In this document: in pieces, positions 7,690 to 25,666 of the stretch
How positions within the stretch are numbered: position 1 is the stretch's first letter
Layout: each line of letters begins with the position of its first letter
Origin: Kitasatospora sp. NA04385
Lineage (GTDB): Bacteria > Actinomycetota > Actinomycetes > Streptomycetales > Streptomycetaceae
DNA length: 64,000 nucleotides
Direction of reading: 5' to 3'
Assembly: GCF_013364235.1 (NCBI RefSeq)
Contig: NZ_CP054919.1
Coordinates: 4,252,701-4,316,700, forward strand
Made by a program: the position numbers and the translations under genes
Notes under the pieces: generated by a model
Databases searched by the model: none
The model's input: only the letters and a program-made list of their open reading frames with translations
Told to the model about the DNA's origin: nothing

Positions 7690-8085
7690 GTGACGTACAT
7701 GCTGCAGATGCACTTCAGCCAGGACGACACCCACGTCCCGCCGATCCCCACCTGGAGCCCCGAGGCCACCGCCGTCCACGTCGCCCACATGCGCCAGACG
7801 GTGGCCGACCTGACCGCCACCGGCGAACTGGTCGAGGCCCGCGGCCTGGCCATGCCCGACACCGCCCGCATCGTCCGCGCCACCGACGGGGCCCCCACCG
7901 TTACCGGCGGCCCGTTCCCGGACAGCAAGGAGTTCCTGTTCGGCTGGTGGCTGGTCGACTGCGCCGACGAGGCGCGGGCGGTCGAGATCGCCGCGCGGGT
8001 CTCTGCCGCGCCCGGGCACGACGGGAAGCCGATGAACATGCCGATCGAGGTGCGGGAGCTGATGTCGGAGCCCCCGGCGGAGTAG
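7690..8085 (+). CDS. YCII-related domain protein (DGPF family)
   Basis: 131-aa YCII-fold protein; such proteins are ferredoxin-like barrels, often encoded beside ECF sigma factors, with poorly known enzymatic roles. The GTG at 7690 has GAGGAG 7 bases upstream. The characteristic GGPFPDSKEFLFGWWLVD segment (about residues 76-93) matches the DGPF/YCII core. The longer reading from 7612 enters the GC-rich leader and is rejected. The stop codon at 8083-8085 is followed after one base by the 14-bp repeat array. Confidence 0.8.
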   Translation: MTYMLQMHFSQDDTHVPPIPTWSPEATAVHVAHMRQTVADLTATGELVEARGLAMPDTARIVRATDGAPTVTGGPFPDSKEFLFGWWLVDCADEARAVEIAARVSAAPGHDGKPMNMPIEVRELMSEPPAE

Positions 8086-8086
8086 T

Positions 8087-8366
8087 GATGACACGTCATT
8101 GGTGTGCGGGCATGGATGTTGCGGCATCAGTGTCGGCGCATCGATGTCGCGACATTGATGTCGGCGCATCTGTGGCGCGACATCGGTGATGGGGCATTCA
8201 TGACGCTGCACCGATGACGTGACATCGGTGTCGCAGCACCCATGCCGCAGCACCGATGTCGAAACACGGATGTCGCAGCGCGGATGCTGGGACATGGGTG
8301 ACGCGACACCGATGTTGGGGCACGGATGTCGGAACACCGATGCCAGAGCACCGGTGACAAAGCACC
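8087..8366. repeat. Array of 20 degenerate 14-bp palindromic direct repeats
   Basis: Twenty consecutive units of exactly 14 bp with no indel. Consensus is roughly GATGTCGCGACACC, whose centre TGTCGCGACA is self-complementary. Columns 3-4 (TG) are invariant in all 20 units, as is column 11 (C); column 12 (A) fails only in unit 14 (8269-8282). The six central bases vary freely. Each unit is therefore a TG-N6-CA inverted repeat. The array fills the space between the YCII stop codon and the next small gene. There are no spacers, so it is not a CRISPR. All reading frames through it are by-products of the repeat. Confidence 0.9.
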
Positions 8367-17345: not shown

Positions 17346-18305
17346 TCAGTTGGCGTCGGCCGGGACGGTGCCGAGGCGGCCGGCCTGGAAGTCCTCCATG
17401 GCCTGCTGGAGTTCGCGGTGGCTGTTCATCACGAACGGGCCGTACCAGGCGACGGGCTCGCGGATCGGGAGGCCGCCGAGGAGGACGAACTCGAAGGTGG
17501 CGGACCGGGAGTCCTGCTTCTCGTCGGCGCGGATGGTCAGGCTGTCGCCGTCGCCGAAGACCACGGCCTGGCCGGTGCGGAAGGGGCGGCGCTCCTCGCC
17601 CGCGGAGCCGCTGCCGGCGAGGCCGTAGGCGAGGGCGTTGAAGTCGGGGCGCCAGGGGAGGGTGAGCTGGGCGCCGGGGGTGAGCGAGACGTGGGTCATC
17701 GTGATGGGGGTGTGGGTGGCGCCGGGGCCCTGGTGGCCGTCGACCTCGCCGGCGATGACGCGGATCAGGGCGCCGCCGTCCGCGGAGGTGAGCAGCTTGA
17801 CGCTGCCGCCGCGGATGTCCTGGTACTTCGGGGTGATCATCTTGTCCGAGGCGGGCAGGTTCACCCAGAGCTGGAGGCCGTGGAAGAGGCCGCCGGACAT
17901 CACCAGCGACTCGGGCGGGGTCTCGATGTGCAGCAGGCCGGAGCCGGCGGTCATCCACTGGGTGTCGCCGTCGGTGATGGTGCCGCCGCCGCCGTGCGAG
18001 TCACGGTGGATGAAGGTGCCGTCGATGATGTAGGTGACGGTCTCGAAGCCGCGGTGCGGGTGCCAGGGGGTGCCCTTGGGCTCGCCGGCCTCGTAGTCGA
18101 CCTCGCCCATCTGGTCCATCATGATGAACGGGTCGAGGAACTTGGTGTTGATCTTCGCGAAGGCCCGGCGGACGGGGAAGCCCTCGCCCTCGTAGCCCTC
18201 GGGCGCGGTGGCCACGGTGAGGACCGGCCGGGCGGTGCTGTGCACCGGGTCGGGGGTGGTGACGCGCGGCAGGGTCAGCGGGTTCTCGACGGTCACGGCG
18301 GGCAT
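17346..18305 (-). CDS. Pirin family protein
   Basis: 319-aa bicupin. Pirins bind iron and act as redox sensors, quercetinases or regulators of central metabolism. The metal site of the N-terminal cupin is intact: HPHRGFETVTY supplies two His, and a third His and the Glu lie in LLHIETPPE. The C-terminal pirin_C part ends in REPVAWYGPFVMNS. The ATG at 18305 is preceded by AGGAGG (reading GAAGGAGGCCGAC). A striking inverted repeat at 18349-18388 marks its promoter region. Confidence 0.92.
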   Translation of the reverse strand: MPAVTVENPLTLPRVTTPDPVHSTARPVLTVATAPEGYEGEGFPVRRAFAKINTKFLDPFIMMDQMGEVDYEAGEPKGTPWHPHRGFETVTYIIDGTFIHRDSHGGGGTITDGDTQWMTAGSGLLHIETPPESLVMSGGLFHGLQLWVNLPASDKMITPKYQDIRGGSVKLLTSADGGALIRVIAGEVDGHQGPGATHTPITMTHVSLTPGAQLTLPWRPDFNALAYGLAGSGSAGEERRPFRTGQAVVFGDGDSLTIRADEKQDSRSATFEFVLLGGLPIREPVAWYGPFVMNSHRELQQAMEDFQAGRLGTVPADAN

Positions 18306-22593: not shown

Positions 22594-24414
22594 TCACTCC
22601 ATCCCGGCCAGCACCAGCGGCAGCCGGCTCGCGCCGCCCGCCACCAGCTTCACCGGCACGCCCCAGTCCTGCTGGTGCACGTGGCAGGCCGGGTACTCGA
22701 CCGCCGGGTCGTCGTCGCAGGACGCCGCCATCGCCGAGACGTGCAGCACCCCCTCGGCGACCTCGGGAGAGAGCACCAGCTCGCGGCTGAGCGCGCTGTC
22801 CGCGCCCGCGCCGGACACCAGCAGCTCCGGCGGCGTCGCACTGACCAGCAGCCGGGTGGAGGGGCCGTAGCGCTCGTCCAGCTTCTGGCCGGTCGGCGCG
22901 GAGAACACCACGTCCAGCCGCAGCGCGCCCGGGGCGACCTCGGTCGCGGCCCGCTGCGTGCGGTGCGCGACGGCCTCCACCCGGACGGCCTCCTCGGGCA
23001 GCCGCAGCCTGGTCAGCCGGTGCCGGGCCGACTCCACCACCACGATGTCGCCGTCCACCACCACCGCGCCGGACGGCTCGCGCAGGTCGGTGGCCAGCGT
23101 GCTGACCTCGTCGGAGGCCGGGTCGTAGCGGCGCAGCGCGTGGTTGTAGGTGTCGCTGACGGCCACCGAGCCGTCCGGCAGCACGGTCACGCCCAGCGGG
23201 TGCTGGAGCAGCGCCTGCCCGGAGGCGCCGTCGCGGTGCCCGAAGTCGAACAGGCCGGTGCCGACGGCGGTGCGCACCTCGTGGGTTCCACGGGAAACCC
23301 GGCGCAGCGCGGAGGTCTCCGCGTCGGCCACCCACAGCCGCTCGCCGTCCGCGGACACCGCCAGGCCGGACGGCTGGGCGAACCAGGCCTCGTCGGGCGG
23401 GCCGTCCACCAGGCCCTCGTTGGTGGTGCCGGCCGCGACCCGCACCGTGCCCGCCACCGGGTCGAACGCCCACAGCTGGTGCACGCCCGCCATCGCGATC
23501 CACACCTCGCCGTCGAAGAACGCCACGTCCCACGGCGAGGAGAGGTCCACCCCGCGGGCCGGACCGGCGGTCGGCGAGCCCTGCCACCACTGCTTGCCGG
23601 TGCCGGCCAGCGTGGTCACCGAGCCGTCCGCGAGCCGCACCCCGCGCAGCGCGTGGTTCACGGTGTCCGCCACCACCACGTCGTACCCCGGGTCGAGCCC
23701 CTCCGGCACCAGCGCCAGGCCCTGCGGCTCGCTGAACCGCGGCGCGGCCCCGTCCACCAGCCCGCGCACCCCGTCGCCGATCCGCCGCAGCACGCGCTCG
23801 CCGTCCGCGTCCAGCTCCACCAGCGAGTGGTGCCCCGAGTCCGCGACCAGGTAGTGCCCGTCCGGCAGCCGCACCGCCTTCCCCGGGAACCGCAGGTCAC
23901 CCGCCTGCGGCTCGGGCGCCACGTACGGCCCGTCCCCGCGCCGCAGCGTCCCCTTCGCCGCGTGCTCGGCCTCCAGCTCCTCCACCAGCTTCGCGATCGC
24001 GTGCGCGTGCCCCTCCCCGGCGTGCTGCGCGACCACGTACCCCTCCGGGTCGATCACCACCAGCGTCGGCCAGGCCCGCACCGCGTACTGCTTCCACGTC
24101 ACCAGCTCCGGATCGTCCAGCACCGGGTGGTGCACCTCGTACCGGGCCACCGCGTCGACCACCGCCCGGTGGTCGGCCTCGTGGACGAACTTCGGCGAGT
24201 GCACGCCGACGATCACCACGGTGTCCCGGTGCCGCTCCTCCAACTCCCGGAGTTCGTCCAGGACGTGGAGGCAGTTGATGCAGCAGAAGGTCCAGAAGTC
24301 CGCGATCACGATCTTGCCGCGGAAGTCGGCCAGGGACAGGTCCTTGCCCCCGGTGTTCAGCCATCCGCCCTTGCCCACCAGCTCGGGGGCGCGGACGCGT
24401 GCACGAGAAGTCAT
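22594..24414 (-). CDS. Thioredoxin-like/NHL repeat protein (NHLRC2-like)
   Basis: 606-aa protein. A thioredoxin-like domain (residues 1-160) carries the redox motif in DFWTFCCINCLHVLDE, where CCINC replaces the usual CxxC. A six-bladed NHL beta-propeller (about 185-480) follows, with blades such as HYLVADSGHHSLVEL and DVVVADTVNHALRGVRL. A C-terminal beta domain holds CDDDPAVEYPACHVH. The architecture matches animal NHLRC2 and its bacterial relatives; substrate unknown. The ATG at 24414 lies within one copy of the 57-bp repeat that bounds the inserted Fic gene. A partial second copy of its first ten codons (MTSRARVRAP) survives at 25640. Confidence 0.88.
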   Translation of the reverse strand: MTSRARVRAPELVGKGGWLNTGGKDLSLADFRGKIVIADFWTFCCINCLHVLDELRELEERHRDTVVIVGVHSPKFVHEADHRAVVDAVARYEVHHPVLDDPELVTWKQYAVRAWPTLVVIDPEGYVVAQHAGEGHAHAIAKLVEELEAEHAAKGTLRRGDGPYVAPEPQAGDLRFPGKAVRLPDGHYLVADSGHHSLVELDADGERVLRRIGDGVRGLVDGAAPRFSEPQGLALVPEGLDPGYDVVVADTVNHALRGVRLADGSVTTLAGTGKQWWQGSPTAGPARGVDLSSPWDVAFFDGEVWIAMAGVHQLWAFDPVAGTVRVAAGTTNEGLVDGPPDEAWFAQPSGLAVSADGERLWVADAETSALRRVSRGTHEVRTAVGTGLFDFGHRDGASGQALLQHPLGVTVLPDGSVAVSDTYNHALRRYDPASDEVSTLATDLREPSGAVVVDGDIVVVESARHRLTRLRLPEEAVRVEAVAHRTQRAATEVAPGALRLDVVFSAPTGQKLDERYGPSTRLLVSATPPELLVSGAGADSALSRELVLSPEVAEGVLHVSAMAASCDDDPAVEYPACHVHQQDWGVPVKLVAGGASRLPLVLAGME

Positions 24415-24442
24415 GCCCCCAGTCAACCTCACCGGGCCGGGG
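24386..24442. repeat. 57-bp direct repeat, left copy (contains start of thioredoxin-NHL gene)
   Basis: It matches 25610-25666 at 53 of 57 positions, offset exactly 1224 bp; the four mismatches all lie in the right-hand half. It includes codons 1-9 of the thioredoxin-NHL gene and its immediate leader, so the gene keeps an intact 5' end next to the Fic insert. Confidence 0.9.
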
Positions 24443-24460
24443 AGCTGTTCACTCCTGCGC

Positions 24461-25522
24461 TCACACCCCGTCGGACTTGGGCCTGCGCCGGTGCTTGTCG
24501 GCCTGGTAGGCGGCCACGGACTTCCGGGACGAGCGCCACACCCCGTCCGGCCCCTGCACGGCGTTGAGCCGACCCCGTTGGGCCGCCTGCCGCAGTGCGG
24601 CCAGGGAGTGCTCTGCGTCCACCAGCGCGGCGAGCGGAACCAGCCGTGCGGGGCCGGCCACGTTCGGCACGATGAAGCGGTTGAGGTTGTCCTCCATGGC
24701 CCGGGCGATCAGCTCGCCGAGGGTTCCGCAGTCACCGGCGTCGGCGCGGCGCAGGGCGGCCAGGTAAGCCTCCCGCTGCCTCTTGAGGATGATGATCGGC
24801 GGGTAGCCCAGGCGGACGAGGACGAGGTTCATCACCAGTCGTCCTGTTCGCCCGTTACCGTCGAGGAACGGATGAATGCGTTCGAACCGGTTGTGGATCC
24901 CGGCCAGGACCTCCGGGAGCGGCCGGCCCAGTTCCTCACCGCCCCCGATCTGCTTGCCGAAGGCACAGACCTCGCCGACCCACTCCTCGACACGGGGAGG
25001 AACGAGCGGCCACTTCGGGGGCGTCATTCCCTCCGCGAACGGGTGGATGTCGTGTTCCCGGAAGCTGCCGGGGCCCTCCCGGTCGGTGGCCTCCGGATGG
25101 GGCGCGACGTTCCAGACCGGCGACATGGCGACGTGATGGATGTGGCGGACCTCGCCGAGCGTGATCAGCCGTCCGTCATGCCATGCGTCCGGTTCAAGGG
25201 CCTGCCCGTAGACCCAACGGGCGGCATCCGCGTAGCCCTGGACCTCGTTGTACTCCTTCAGCGGCTTGGCACCGACGGCTCGGCCCTGGTCGAGTAGCGC
25301 CTCGACCTCGCGAAGGACGAGGGTGTTGCCTTCGAGCGCGGTCGAATGGTGCGCTTCCTGGTGCCAGATGTCGTCCCAGATCTCTCGGGCCTCCCGGGGG
25401 CTCGGCAGCCCGCCGAAGCGCTCGTTCAGCTCGGCCAGGGCCCCGCTCAGCCGCTGGTACACCGTGCTGCGACTGGGCCTGCCCCTGCCTGCCACGAACT
25501 TCCTCCCCGAGAGTTGATACAT
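24461..25522 (-). CDS. Fic domain protein (AMP-transferase type)
   Basis: 353-aa Fic protein. Fic enzymes usually attach AMP from ATP to Ser, Thr or Tyr of a target. The catalytic motif HPFLDGNGRTGR (His217 to Arg228) is complete. An N-terminal inhibitory helix motif (S/T)xxxE(G/N) is present as STALEGN (residues 60-66), so this is a class II, self-inhibited Fic. The N-terminal Fic_N part (DIWHQEAHH) and a C-terminal helix-turn-like region (LAALRQAAQRGRL) complete it. No antitoxin gene adjoins. The promoter region is unusually AT-rich for this genome, with AGTTGATA/TATCAACT arms (25511-25518, 25545-25552) flanking the start codon. The gene and little else lies between direct repeats, which suggests transfer. 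Confidence 0.9.
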   Translation of the reverse strand: MYQLSGRKFVAGRGRPSRSTVYQRLSGALAELNERFGGLPSPREAREIWDDIWHQEAHHSTALEGNTLVLREVEALLDQGRAVGAKPLKEYNEVQGYADAARWVYGQALEPDAWHDGRLITLGEVRHIHHVAMSPVWNVAPHPEATDREGPGSFREHDIHPFAEGMTPPKWPLVPPRVEEWVGEVCAFGKQIGGGEELGRPLPEVLAGIHNRFERIHPFLDGNGRTGRLVMNLVLVRLGYPPIIILKRQREAYLAALRRADAGDCGTLGELIARAMEDNLNRFIVPNVAGPARLVPLAALVDAEHSLAALRQAAQRGRLNAVQGPDGVWRSSRKSVAAYQADKHRRRPKSDGV

Positions 25523-25609
25523 GCCGATGGTGGCTAATTGAACTTATCAACTTCGGGCGGGGGGCTCTGCCCGGTTGCCGCGGTGTCACCCCCGGGGGTG
25601 ATCCTTCCA

Positions 25610-25666
25610 GGGGCGCGGACGCGTGCACGAGAAGTCATGCCCTCGGTCAACCCCATCGGGCCGGGG
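25610..25666. repeat. 57-bp direct repeat, right copy
   Basis: Right-hand copy of the sequence at 24386-24442. On the minus strand it retains ATG and nine codons of the thioredoxin-NHL gene, after which the reading diverges. It lies just outside the terminator of the lectin gene, probably where the original thioredoxin-NHL leader stood. Confidence 0.9.

What the first reader, a model, noticed from the sequence alone, without database searches (positions are those of the whole stretch)
24386..25666. Fic gene bounded by 57-bp direct repeats at the start of the thioredoxin-NHL gene
The two repeats are 1224 bp apart, 53/57 identical, and each contains the ATG and first codons of the thioredoxin-NHL gene. 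Only a Fic gene with an AT-rich promoter lies between. This is what an integrative event at a gene's 5' end would leave (attL/attR-like), with the host gene regenerated by the element. No integrase is present, so it would be a minimal, non-autonomous element or the scar of one.
Basis: partly seen in the sequence, partly recalled or inferred. Interest (0 to 1): 0.75.

Follow-up and report, generated by a model that had tools for sequence, protein, structure and literature searches.

The report
Scar of a gene-start-replacing mobile element
The Fic gene sits in what look like the remains of a mobile DNA insertion of a kind that, in related Kitasatospora bacteria, goes into the start of a thioredoxin-like gene and supplies that gene with a new start, so the two short repeats are leftovers of the doubled gene start.

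Summary
The repeats are real: 24386-24442 and 25610-25666, 53/57 identical; their core occurs only twice in the 8.4-Mb genome. The genus is Kitasatospora. Comparing 70 genomes shows that the 5' end of the thioredoxin-NHL gene is an integration hotspot. In nine relatives 5.9-9.7 kb lie between the truncated gene start (codons 1-41) and the complete gene, beginning with a 511-512 aa large serine recombinase (Pfam-tested in two). Host sequence stops at GACTTCTGG; the element carries its own promoter and codons 1-41, so the gene is rebuilt. Eleven of 70 genomes, including this one, have an orthologous fic gene there and no such recombinase; six of the 11 keep a second gene-start copy. In the window that copy lost everything after codon 9. 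The papers I saw passages of describe serine-recombinase elements in protein genes mostly as disrupting them; one that rebuilds promoter and 5' end looks like a new variant. That this recombinase family brought fic in is inferred, not shown.

The parts
22594..24414 (-). thioredoxin-NHL gene (606 aa), the integration target
   Evidence: ORF; Pfam NHL, Thioredoxin_8, AhpC-TSA; full-length in all 70 genomes of the genus sample
24292..24300 (-). GACTTCTGG, codons 39-41: inferred exchange point (attR side); predicted crossover dinucleotide TG at 24293-24294
   Evidence: position checked; host/element boundary in nine recombinase elements; 19 of 23 change points at nt 108-120 of the gene. The TG dinucleotide is inference from the reconstructed palindrome GACTTC-TG-GAAGTC
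24386..24442 (-). repeat copy A: start of the complete NHL gene (attR side), with host-type sequence
24461..25522 (-). fic gene (353 aa; the start conserved among orthologs is GTG at 25495, 344 aa); motifs STALEGN and HPFLDGNGRTGR
   Evidence: median dN/dS 0.09 over 36 pairs of nine orthologs
25513..25551 (.). inverted repeat GTTGATA..TATCAAC overlapping the 5' end of fic; probable operator or promoter part
   Evidence: present upstream of 10 of 11 fic genes, absent only at the truncated G050; function inferred
25610..25666 (-). repeat copy B: remnant of the original gene start (attL side), 28 nt upstream plus codons 1-9; the rest, with the exchange point, is missing at 25609/25610
   Evidence: in G024 the copy runs to codon 45
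24435..25658 (.). DNA that interrupts the homology to the empty site of G023
   Evidence: homology ends 1245 bp upstream of the ATG and resumes 20 bp upstream (G023 has another 139 bp in between)

Best explanation
The locus is the decayed remains of an integrative element. Its relatives integrate at one point in the 5' coding region of the thioredoxin-NHL gene by a large serine recombinase. Integration parts the gene near codon 41: the old promoter and codons 1-41 stay outside the element as an orphan fragment (attL), while the element's other end carries a substitute promoter and codons 1-41 that join in frame to the rest of the gene (attR), so the gene stays whole. Seen in relatives: recombinase gene, both junctions, substitute gene start, empty sites; recombinase activity itself is inferred from its domains. 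Seen in the window: doubled gene start, fic between the copies, no integrase, orphan copy cut down to 57 bp. Inferred: that this recombinase family or a close cousin brought fic in; that deletions removed the recombinase and most of the orphan copy; that gene conversion between the copies made the complete gene start host-like again and the two copies 93% alike. What remains is a conserved fic gene 46 bp upstream of the thioredoxin-NHL gene and probably co-transcribed with it. By its motifs Fic is most likely a self-inhibited AMP-transferase (FICD-like).
For: 13 genomes without fic, of 70, have a truncated gene start, other DNA, then the complete gene; in 10 of these 13 the recombinase follows the truncated copy, in G036, G048 and G055 it is absent. 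Of 27 close recombinase loci in Streptomycetaceae, 20 have the truncated gene start directly upstream, 9 of 15 outside Kitasatospora. Of 63 close genome pairs, 23 passed a filter for an abrupt drop of identity at the gene start; 19 of the 23 switch at nt 108-120. Six of 11 fic loci carry a gene-start remnant (scores 94-343; shuffles at most 39); of 45 control loci 44 score at most 46 and one, G034, scores 171. The complete gene in fic loci G024, G011 and G041 has the element-type codons seen in 12 of 13 cargo loci and 0 of 17 truncated copies. G011 and G012 share 98.0% over 6.5 kb upstream and 98.3% of the NHL body, but their fic genes are 84.3% identical. Of 394 family genomes 13 match this fic at E <= 1e-80, 12 of them next to NHL; the thirteenth is 60% identical.
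Against: No intact element with both this fic and the recombinase was found. The spacer upstream of fic shows no similarity to the recombinase end above shuffles (10 of 11 loci tested). The truncated copies in five fic loci end 7-18 nt further in than the recombinase junction, although left arms vary and can mimic host sequence there (G034). Only 3 of 11 fic loci have the element-type codons; the window's gene start is host-like. Five of 11 fic loci have no detectable remnant. The truncated copy is nearer than the complete one to the closest empty relative in only 10 of 13 loci, sign test p = 0.09.
Confidence: 0.72

Rival explanations
1. A different, now lost integrase that shares the hotspot brought fic in; the serine recombinase family in relatives is a separate visitor.
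For: Fic loci have their own left-arm sequence and a slightly later end of the truncated copy (nt 130-141 against 123); no recombinase remnant in the spacer (10 of 11 tested).
Against: Both classes share the site and the doubled gene start; the motif TAGGGATC lies near the left junction in 7 of 9 recombinase elements and in fic loci G011 and G056; three fic loci have the element-type codons. I recognised no other integrase at the site, but only part of the cargo ORFs was tested, and small resolvases are among them.
Confidence: 0.2
2. No site-specific event: fic moved between species by homologous recombination in the NHL gene on one side and illegitimate joining on the other, leaving a fragment of the recipient's gene start.
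For: Fic and NHL histories disagree; 8 of 11 fic loci lack the element-type codons.
Against: Remnants in five fic loci end within 11 nt of each other, next to the recombinase junction; illegitimate joins should scatter, unless all five descend from one event. It may still explain secondary spread of fic alleles, e.g. G011 against G012.
Confidence: 0.15
3. The 57-bp repeat is a regulatory element, a target-site duplication of a transposon, or a simple tandem duplication.
For: It includes part of a promoter region.
Against: Copy B contains coding sequence cut at codon 9 and is longer in relatives. No inverted-repeat pair at the two boundaries among the 25 longest of 83 listed. DDE transposases duplicate 2-13 bp (PMC4701971, passage).
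Confidence: 0.02

Closest known systems
Tyrosine-recombinase ICEs at gene 5' ends (Streptococcus rbgA, ftsK, ebfC)
   Same: Integration at the 5' end of a protein gene with the N-terminus kept; in some the upstream sequence with the promoter is replaced (PMC4701971, passages).
   Different: In the relatives here the enzyme is a large serine recombinase, and the substitute includes about 41 codons with altered residues.
Serine-recombinase IMEs and ICEs in rumA, mutT, hsdM, traG
   Same: Resolvase + Recombinase (+ zinc ribbon) integrase at one end, integration inside a protein gene.
   Different: Those disrupt the target or exchange its 3' part (PMC5704250 and PMC4701971, passages); here the target is rebuilt.
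CIMEs (decayed ICE/IME that kept attL and attR)
   Same: Site occupied, integrase lost, cargo left (term from PMC5704250, passage).
   Different: The window's left copy has lost the exchange point, so it is a scar rather than a mobilizable element.
phiC31 integrase attachment site in the Streptomyces pirin gene (recalled)
   Same: Same enzyme class; a pirin gene with a phiC31-attB-like sequence lies about 6 kb away in the window (pattern from memory).
   Different: Other target gene; the best-ranked phage match of the NHL recombinase is 31.6% identical and none of 731 phage records reaches 60%.
FICD / BtFic-like Fic proteins
   Same: HPFxDGNGR active site, and the N-terminal EGN motif aligned to FICD.
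   Different: Target and activity unknown; Pfam gives only Fic and a sub-threshold Fic_N match.

Membership tests
Large-serine-recombinase integrative element | Encodes a Resolvase + Recombinase integrase next to att | tested here: not met
   Window: none; own genome has no member of this family. Relatives: in 11 of 70 fetched regions, plus G066 on another contig.
Large-serine-recombinase integrative element | Conserved integration point with host sequence outside and element sequence inside | tested here: inconclusive
   Met in relatives: GACTTCTGG boundary. In the window the gene start is doubled at the same place, but the left boundary is deleted.
Large-serine-recombinase integrative element | Free circular form / attP | tested here: inconclusive
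   No complete attP in 70 genus genomes, only attL or attR halves and one unrelated partial match; none in viral contigs. Assemblies rarely show circles.
CIME (cis-mobilizable element) | Both attL and attR retained | tested here: not met
   Copy B lacks codons 10-45, hence the exchange point.
Gene-regenerating 5'-end integration | Complete target gene with element-supplied start; truncated original start outside | tested here: met
   Relatives, e.g. G024: outer copy 98.0%, inner copy 74.8% like the nearest empty relative. In the window both copies are host-like, so met by position only.
Transposon or IS insertion | Terminal inverted repeats and short target duplication | tested here: not met
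   No boundary inverted repeat among the 25 longest pairs listed; repeat 57 bp.
Fic AMP-transferase with N-terminal inhibitory motif (class II; class name recalled) | HxFxxGNGRxxR and (S/T)xxxE(G/N) motifs | tested here: met
   HPFLDGNGRTGR and STALEGN invariant in 10 orthologs; FICD alignment.
Fic AMP-transferase | AMP transfer and self-inhibition | not testable with these tools
   Needs an assay.
Fic-antitoxin pair | Separate adjacent antitoxin gene | tested here: not met
   Little room: 46 bp between fic and NHL, and the upstream side is not conserved beyond the inverted repeat. An unlinked antitoxin is not excluded.

The most novel reading that the evidence does not exclude
The ~1.2-kb fic cassette itself is a unit that moved repeatedly between thioredoxin-NHL genes, mobilised in trans by the serine recombinase; each entry swaps the host enzyme's promoter and first 41 residues. 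The recombinase elements thereby act as natural promoter-and-N-terminus exchangers of a thiol-stress gene, with an attachment half-site that doubles as coding sequence.
Probability: 0.25. Interest if true: 0.75.

Novelty: new variant of a known kind. Interest (0 to 1): 0.55.

Why it matters
In the passages I read, serine-recombinase elements in protein genes are described as breaking or altering the target, while tyrosine-recombinase elements can spare it. A serine-recombinase family that carries a spare promoter and N-terminal coding region, and so rebuilds a redox gene right before its thioredoxin-type active-site motif (motif recalled), would be an exception and a possible new attachment site (GACTTCTGG region of a gene found in all 70 genomes compared). 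The window shows a likely end state: recombinase gone, one cargo gene kept beside the host gene. If the substitute gene starts change expression of the thioredoxin-NHL enzyme, mobile elements have been rewriting a stress gene across the family; that is testable.

Tried and rejected
57-bp repeat as att core: rejected, since the duplication is longer in G024 and cut short in the window. Simple deletion of the known recombinase element to give fic: not shown; the spacer gave no recombinase similarity above shuffles in 10 of 11 loci, G050 left out. Phage or plasmid origin of the recombinase: all matches in phages (731 records) and plasmids (110) are under 60% identity; no viral contig matched its patterns. 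Fic as a general partner of NHL genes: rejected outside Streptomycetaceae; of the best 80 of 155 fic loci from genome contigs, 8 have NHL nearby and 72 have neither NHL nor this recombinase at E <= 1e-4. The classes (11 fic, 13 cargo, 46 empty) are rough: G034 has a decayed second copy, G066 has recombinase and truncated copy on another contig, G015 has the recombinase without a truncated copy. I kept one search's classes in later counts; one empty genome with too short a region was skipped. The codon signature was defined after seeing the data. Pairs are not independent, and pairs with a weak or opposite change were dropped by the filter.

Full report
OBSERVATION. Each copy holds an ATG and the first codons of the thioredoxin-NHL gene. 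Fic lies between. No integrase is in the window.

EMPTY SITES. All 70 genomes of the genus sample have the NHL gene. I fetched the region from the 69 others (longer stretches of seven) and classed all 70 by script: 11 with fic, 13 with a truncated second gene start and other DNA, 46 with neither (corrections in Tried and rejected). G023 has the same lectin neighbour as the window; homology to it ends 1245 bp upstream of the window's ATG and resumes 20 bp upstream, that is inside the two repeats. G025, G009, G008 and G028 also show one copy.

THE HOTSPOT. In G003, G007, G014, G040, G043, G047, G060, G061 and G067 the two gene starts lie 5.9-9.7 kb apart. The upstream copy follows the gene to codon 41 (GACTTCTGG or GATTTCTGG) and then turns into element sequence; about 40 bp later begins a 511-512 aa ORF. 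The two I gave to Pfam (G003, G007) have Resolvase, Recombinase and zinc-ribbon domains; the others are 89-97% identical to G007's. G010 has a 68% identical one; G036, G048 and G055 have the doubled start without it. The complete copy has different codons up to the same point (e.g. GGTAAGTGTGTCGTACTAGACTTCTGG). By the rule this signature is in 12 of 13 cargo loci, 6 of 46 empties, 3 of 11 fic loci and 0 of 17 truncated copies; Fisher p = 1.9e-7 for cargo against empty. So the element supplies a gene start. Combining the two element arms gives attP GACTTC-TG-GAAGTC, a palindrome around TG (G067 has GATGTC on the right); this is inference. Family members outside Kitasatospora also follow a truncated NHL start, 9 of 15 close matches; 20 of 27 with Kitasatospora (only the 30 best matches were fetched, three of them under 45% identity and left out of this count). 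Other cargo, from a part of the ORFs: phage capsid protein, NUDIX, methyltransferase, D5-like primase, a small resolvase, helix-turn-helix proteins.

WHERE THE EXCHANGE LIES. Among 63 genome pairs with at least 94% identical NHL bodies, 23 show a strong drop of identity in the first part of the gene; 19 of these switch at nt 108-120, the other four at 136-182. GACTTCTGG is nt 115-123.

PROMOTER. 62 of 70 complete copies have GGAAT-N18/19-GTT within 50 nt of the ATG, as do 10 of 13 truncated copies complete at the 5' end; the window's 64 kb has one match on both strands, not at this gene. This is the published SigR consensus (PMC9205884, passage). SigR control of this gene is inferred. The complete gene of the window lacks an exact match, as do G024, G011 and G012, the fic loci nearest to it in the NHL tree; so do three empties and one cargo locus, while seven fic loci have one (spacing 17-19).

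FIC LOCI. All 11 fic genes of the genus sample lie upstream of NHL; 46-60 bp separate the end of the match from the ATG. Remnants of the gene start are found upstream of fic in 6 of 11 (positions relative to ATG): G024 (-57 to 135), G056 (-45 to 130), G011 (16 to 133), G041 (46 to 130), G044 (40 to 141) and the window (-28 to 29); none in G012, G035, G038, G050, G058. In G024 the outer copy is 98.0% like its nearest empty relative and the inner one 74.8%, as expected if the outer is the native start. Over 13 loci with a complete outer copy, the outer is closer in 10; G014, G036 and G040 go the other way. In the window both copies look native, most simply by gene conversion; G056 is similar (93.9% between its copies).

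MOVEMENT OF FIC. Fic and NHL-body histories disagree. G011 and G012: 98.0% over 6.5 kb upstream, 98.3% in the NHL body, 84.3% in fic. G038 and G044: NHL 95.3%, fic 84.0%. G038 and G041: NHL 91.1%, fic 94.1%. So fic alleles arrived more than once or were swapped. Fic is conserved (median dN/dS 0.09, 36 pairs; GC3 0.87 in the window against 0.98 for NHL). G050's fic is truncated.

WHO BROUGHT IT. No element with both genes was found. The fic matches 13 of 394 family genomes at E <= 1e-80, and in genus-wise samples at 1e-150 1 of 35 (the same G155) and 1 of 392 (S. bambusae, also next to NHL). None of the 11 genus fic loci has the recombinase within the fetched region. For the recombinase family speak the shared site, the doubled gene start, element codons in three fic loci, and a parallel: a small ORF near the substitute start in an intact element (G007) also stands near the gene in G032, G034, G036 and G069, which have no recombinase there. 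Against it speak the negative spacer test and the later end of the truncated copy.

LITERATURE. An IME review says tyrosine-recombinase elements use gene ends without disruption, while site-specific serine-recombinase IMEs disrupt dispensable genes (PMC5704250, passages). A Streptococcus ICE survey describes 5'-end insertions that keep the N-terminus and sometimes change the promoter, and serine insertions that disrupt or exchange the 3' part (PMC4701971, passages). A large LSR catalogue speaks of target genes as disrupted (PMC10083194, passages). An AICE survey mentions serine recombinases in protein genes and in a tRNA gene; the word Kitasatospora is not in its main text (PMC3218068, passages). 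Searches for this site or for serine integrases restoring a gene start gave no paper that I recognised from the listings; most subscription papers are not held, and supplements were not read.

VERDICT.

Noticed in passing
window 18063-18083 (+): A phiC31-attB-like sequence (one mismatch to a recalled core) inside the ORF 17346-18305, which looks like pirin (name recalled), about 6 kb from the NHL site: two serine-recombinase target genes lie close together.
   Followed up: partly
L106 (G060), positions 8021-8095 in NHL orientation: A further, internal NHL gene-start fragment inside a recombinase element, just after the small MFENVAGL-type ORF: looks like accretion of two elements.
   Followed up: partly
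loci of G007, G032, G034, G036, G069, also G055 and G060: A small ORF (MFENVAGL..) recurs at this site, in five of seven within 350 bp upstream of the NHL ATG, with or without a recombinase; the two copies given to Pfam had no match.
   Followed up: partly
window 24414-24461: Upstream of the window's NHL gene there is no exact SigR-type promoter as in most relatives; the gene may now depend on the fic promoter.
   Followed up: no
L103 5273-6472 and L104 8197-9612: Phage capsid protein and D5-like primase in short recombinase elements: possibly phage satellites.
   Followed up: no
NHL genes of G016, G037, G053, G057, G062: Genomes classed as empty but with element-type or similar codons at the gene start, suggesting past occupation and loss.
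   Followed up: no
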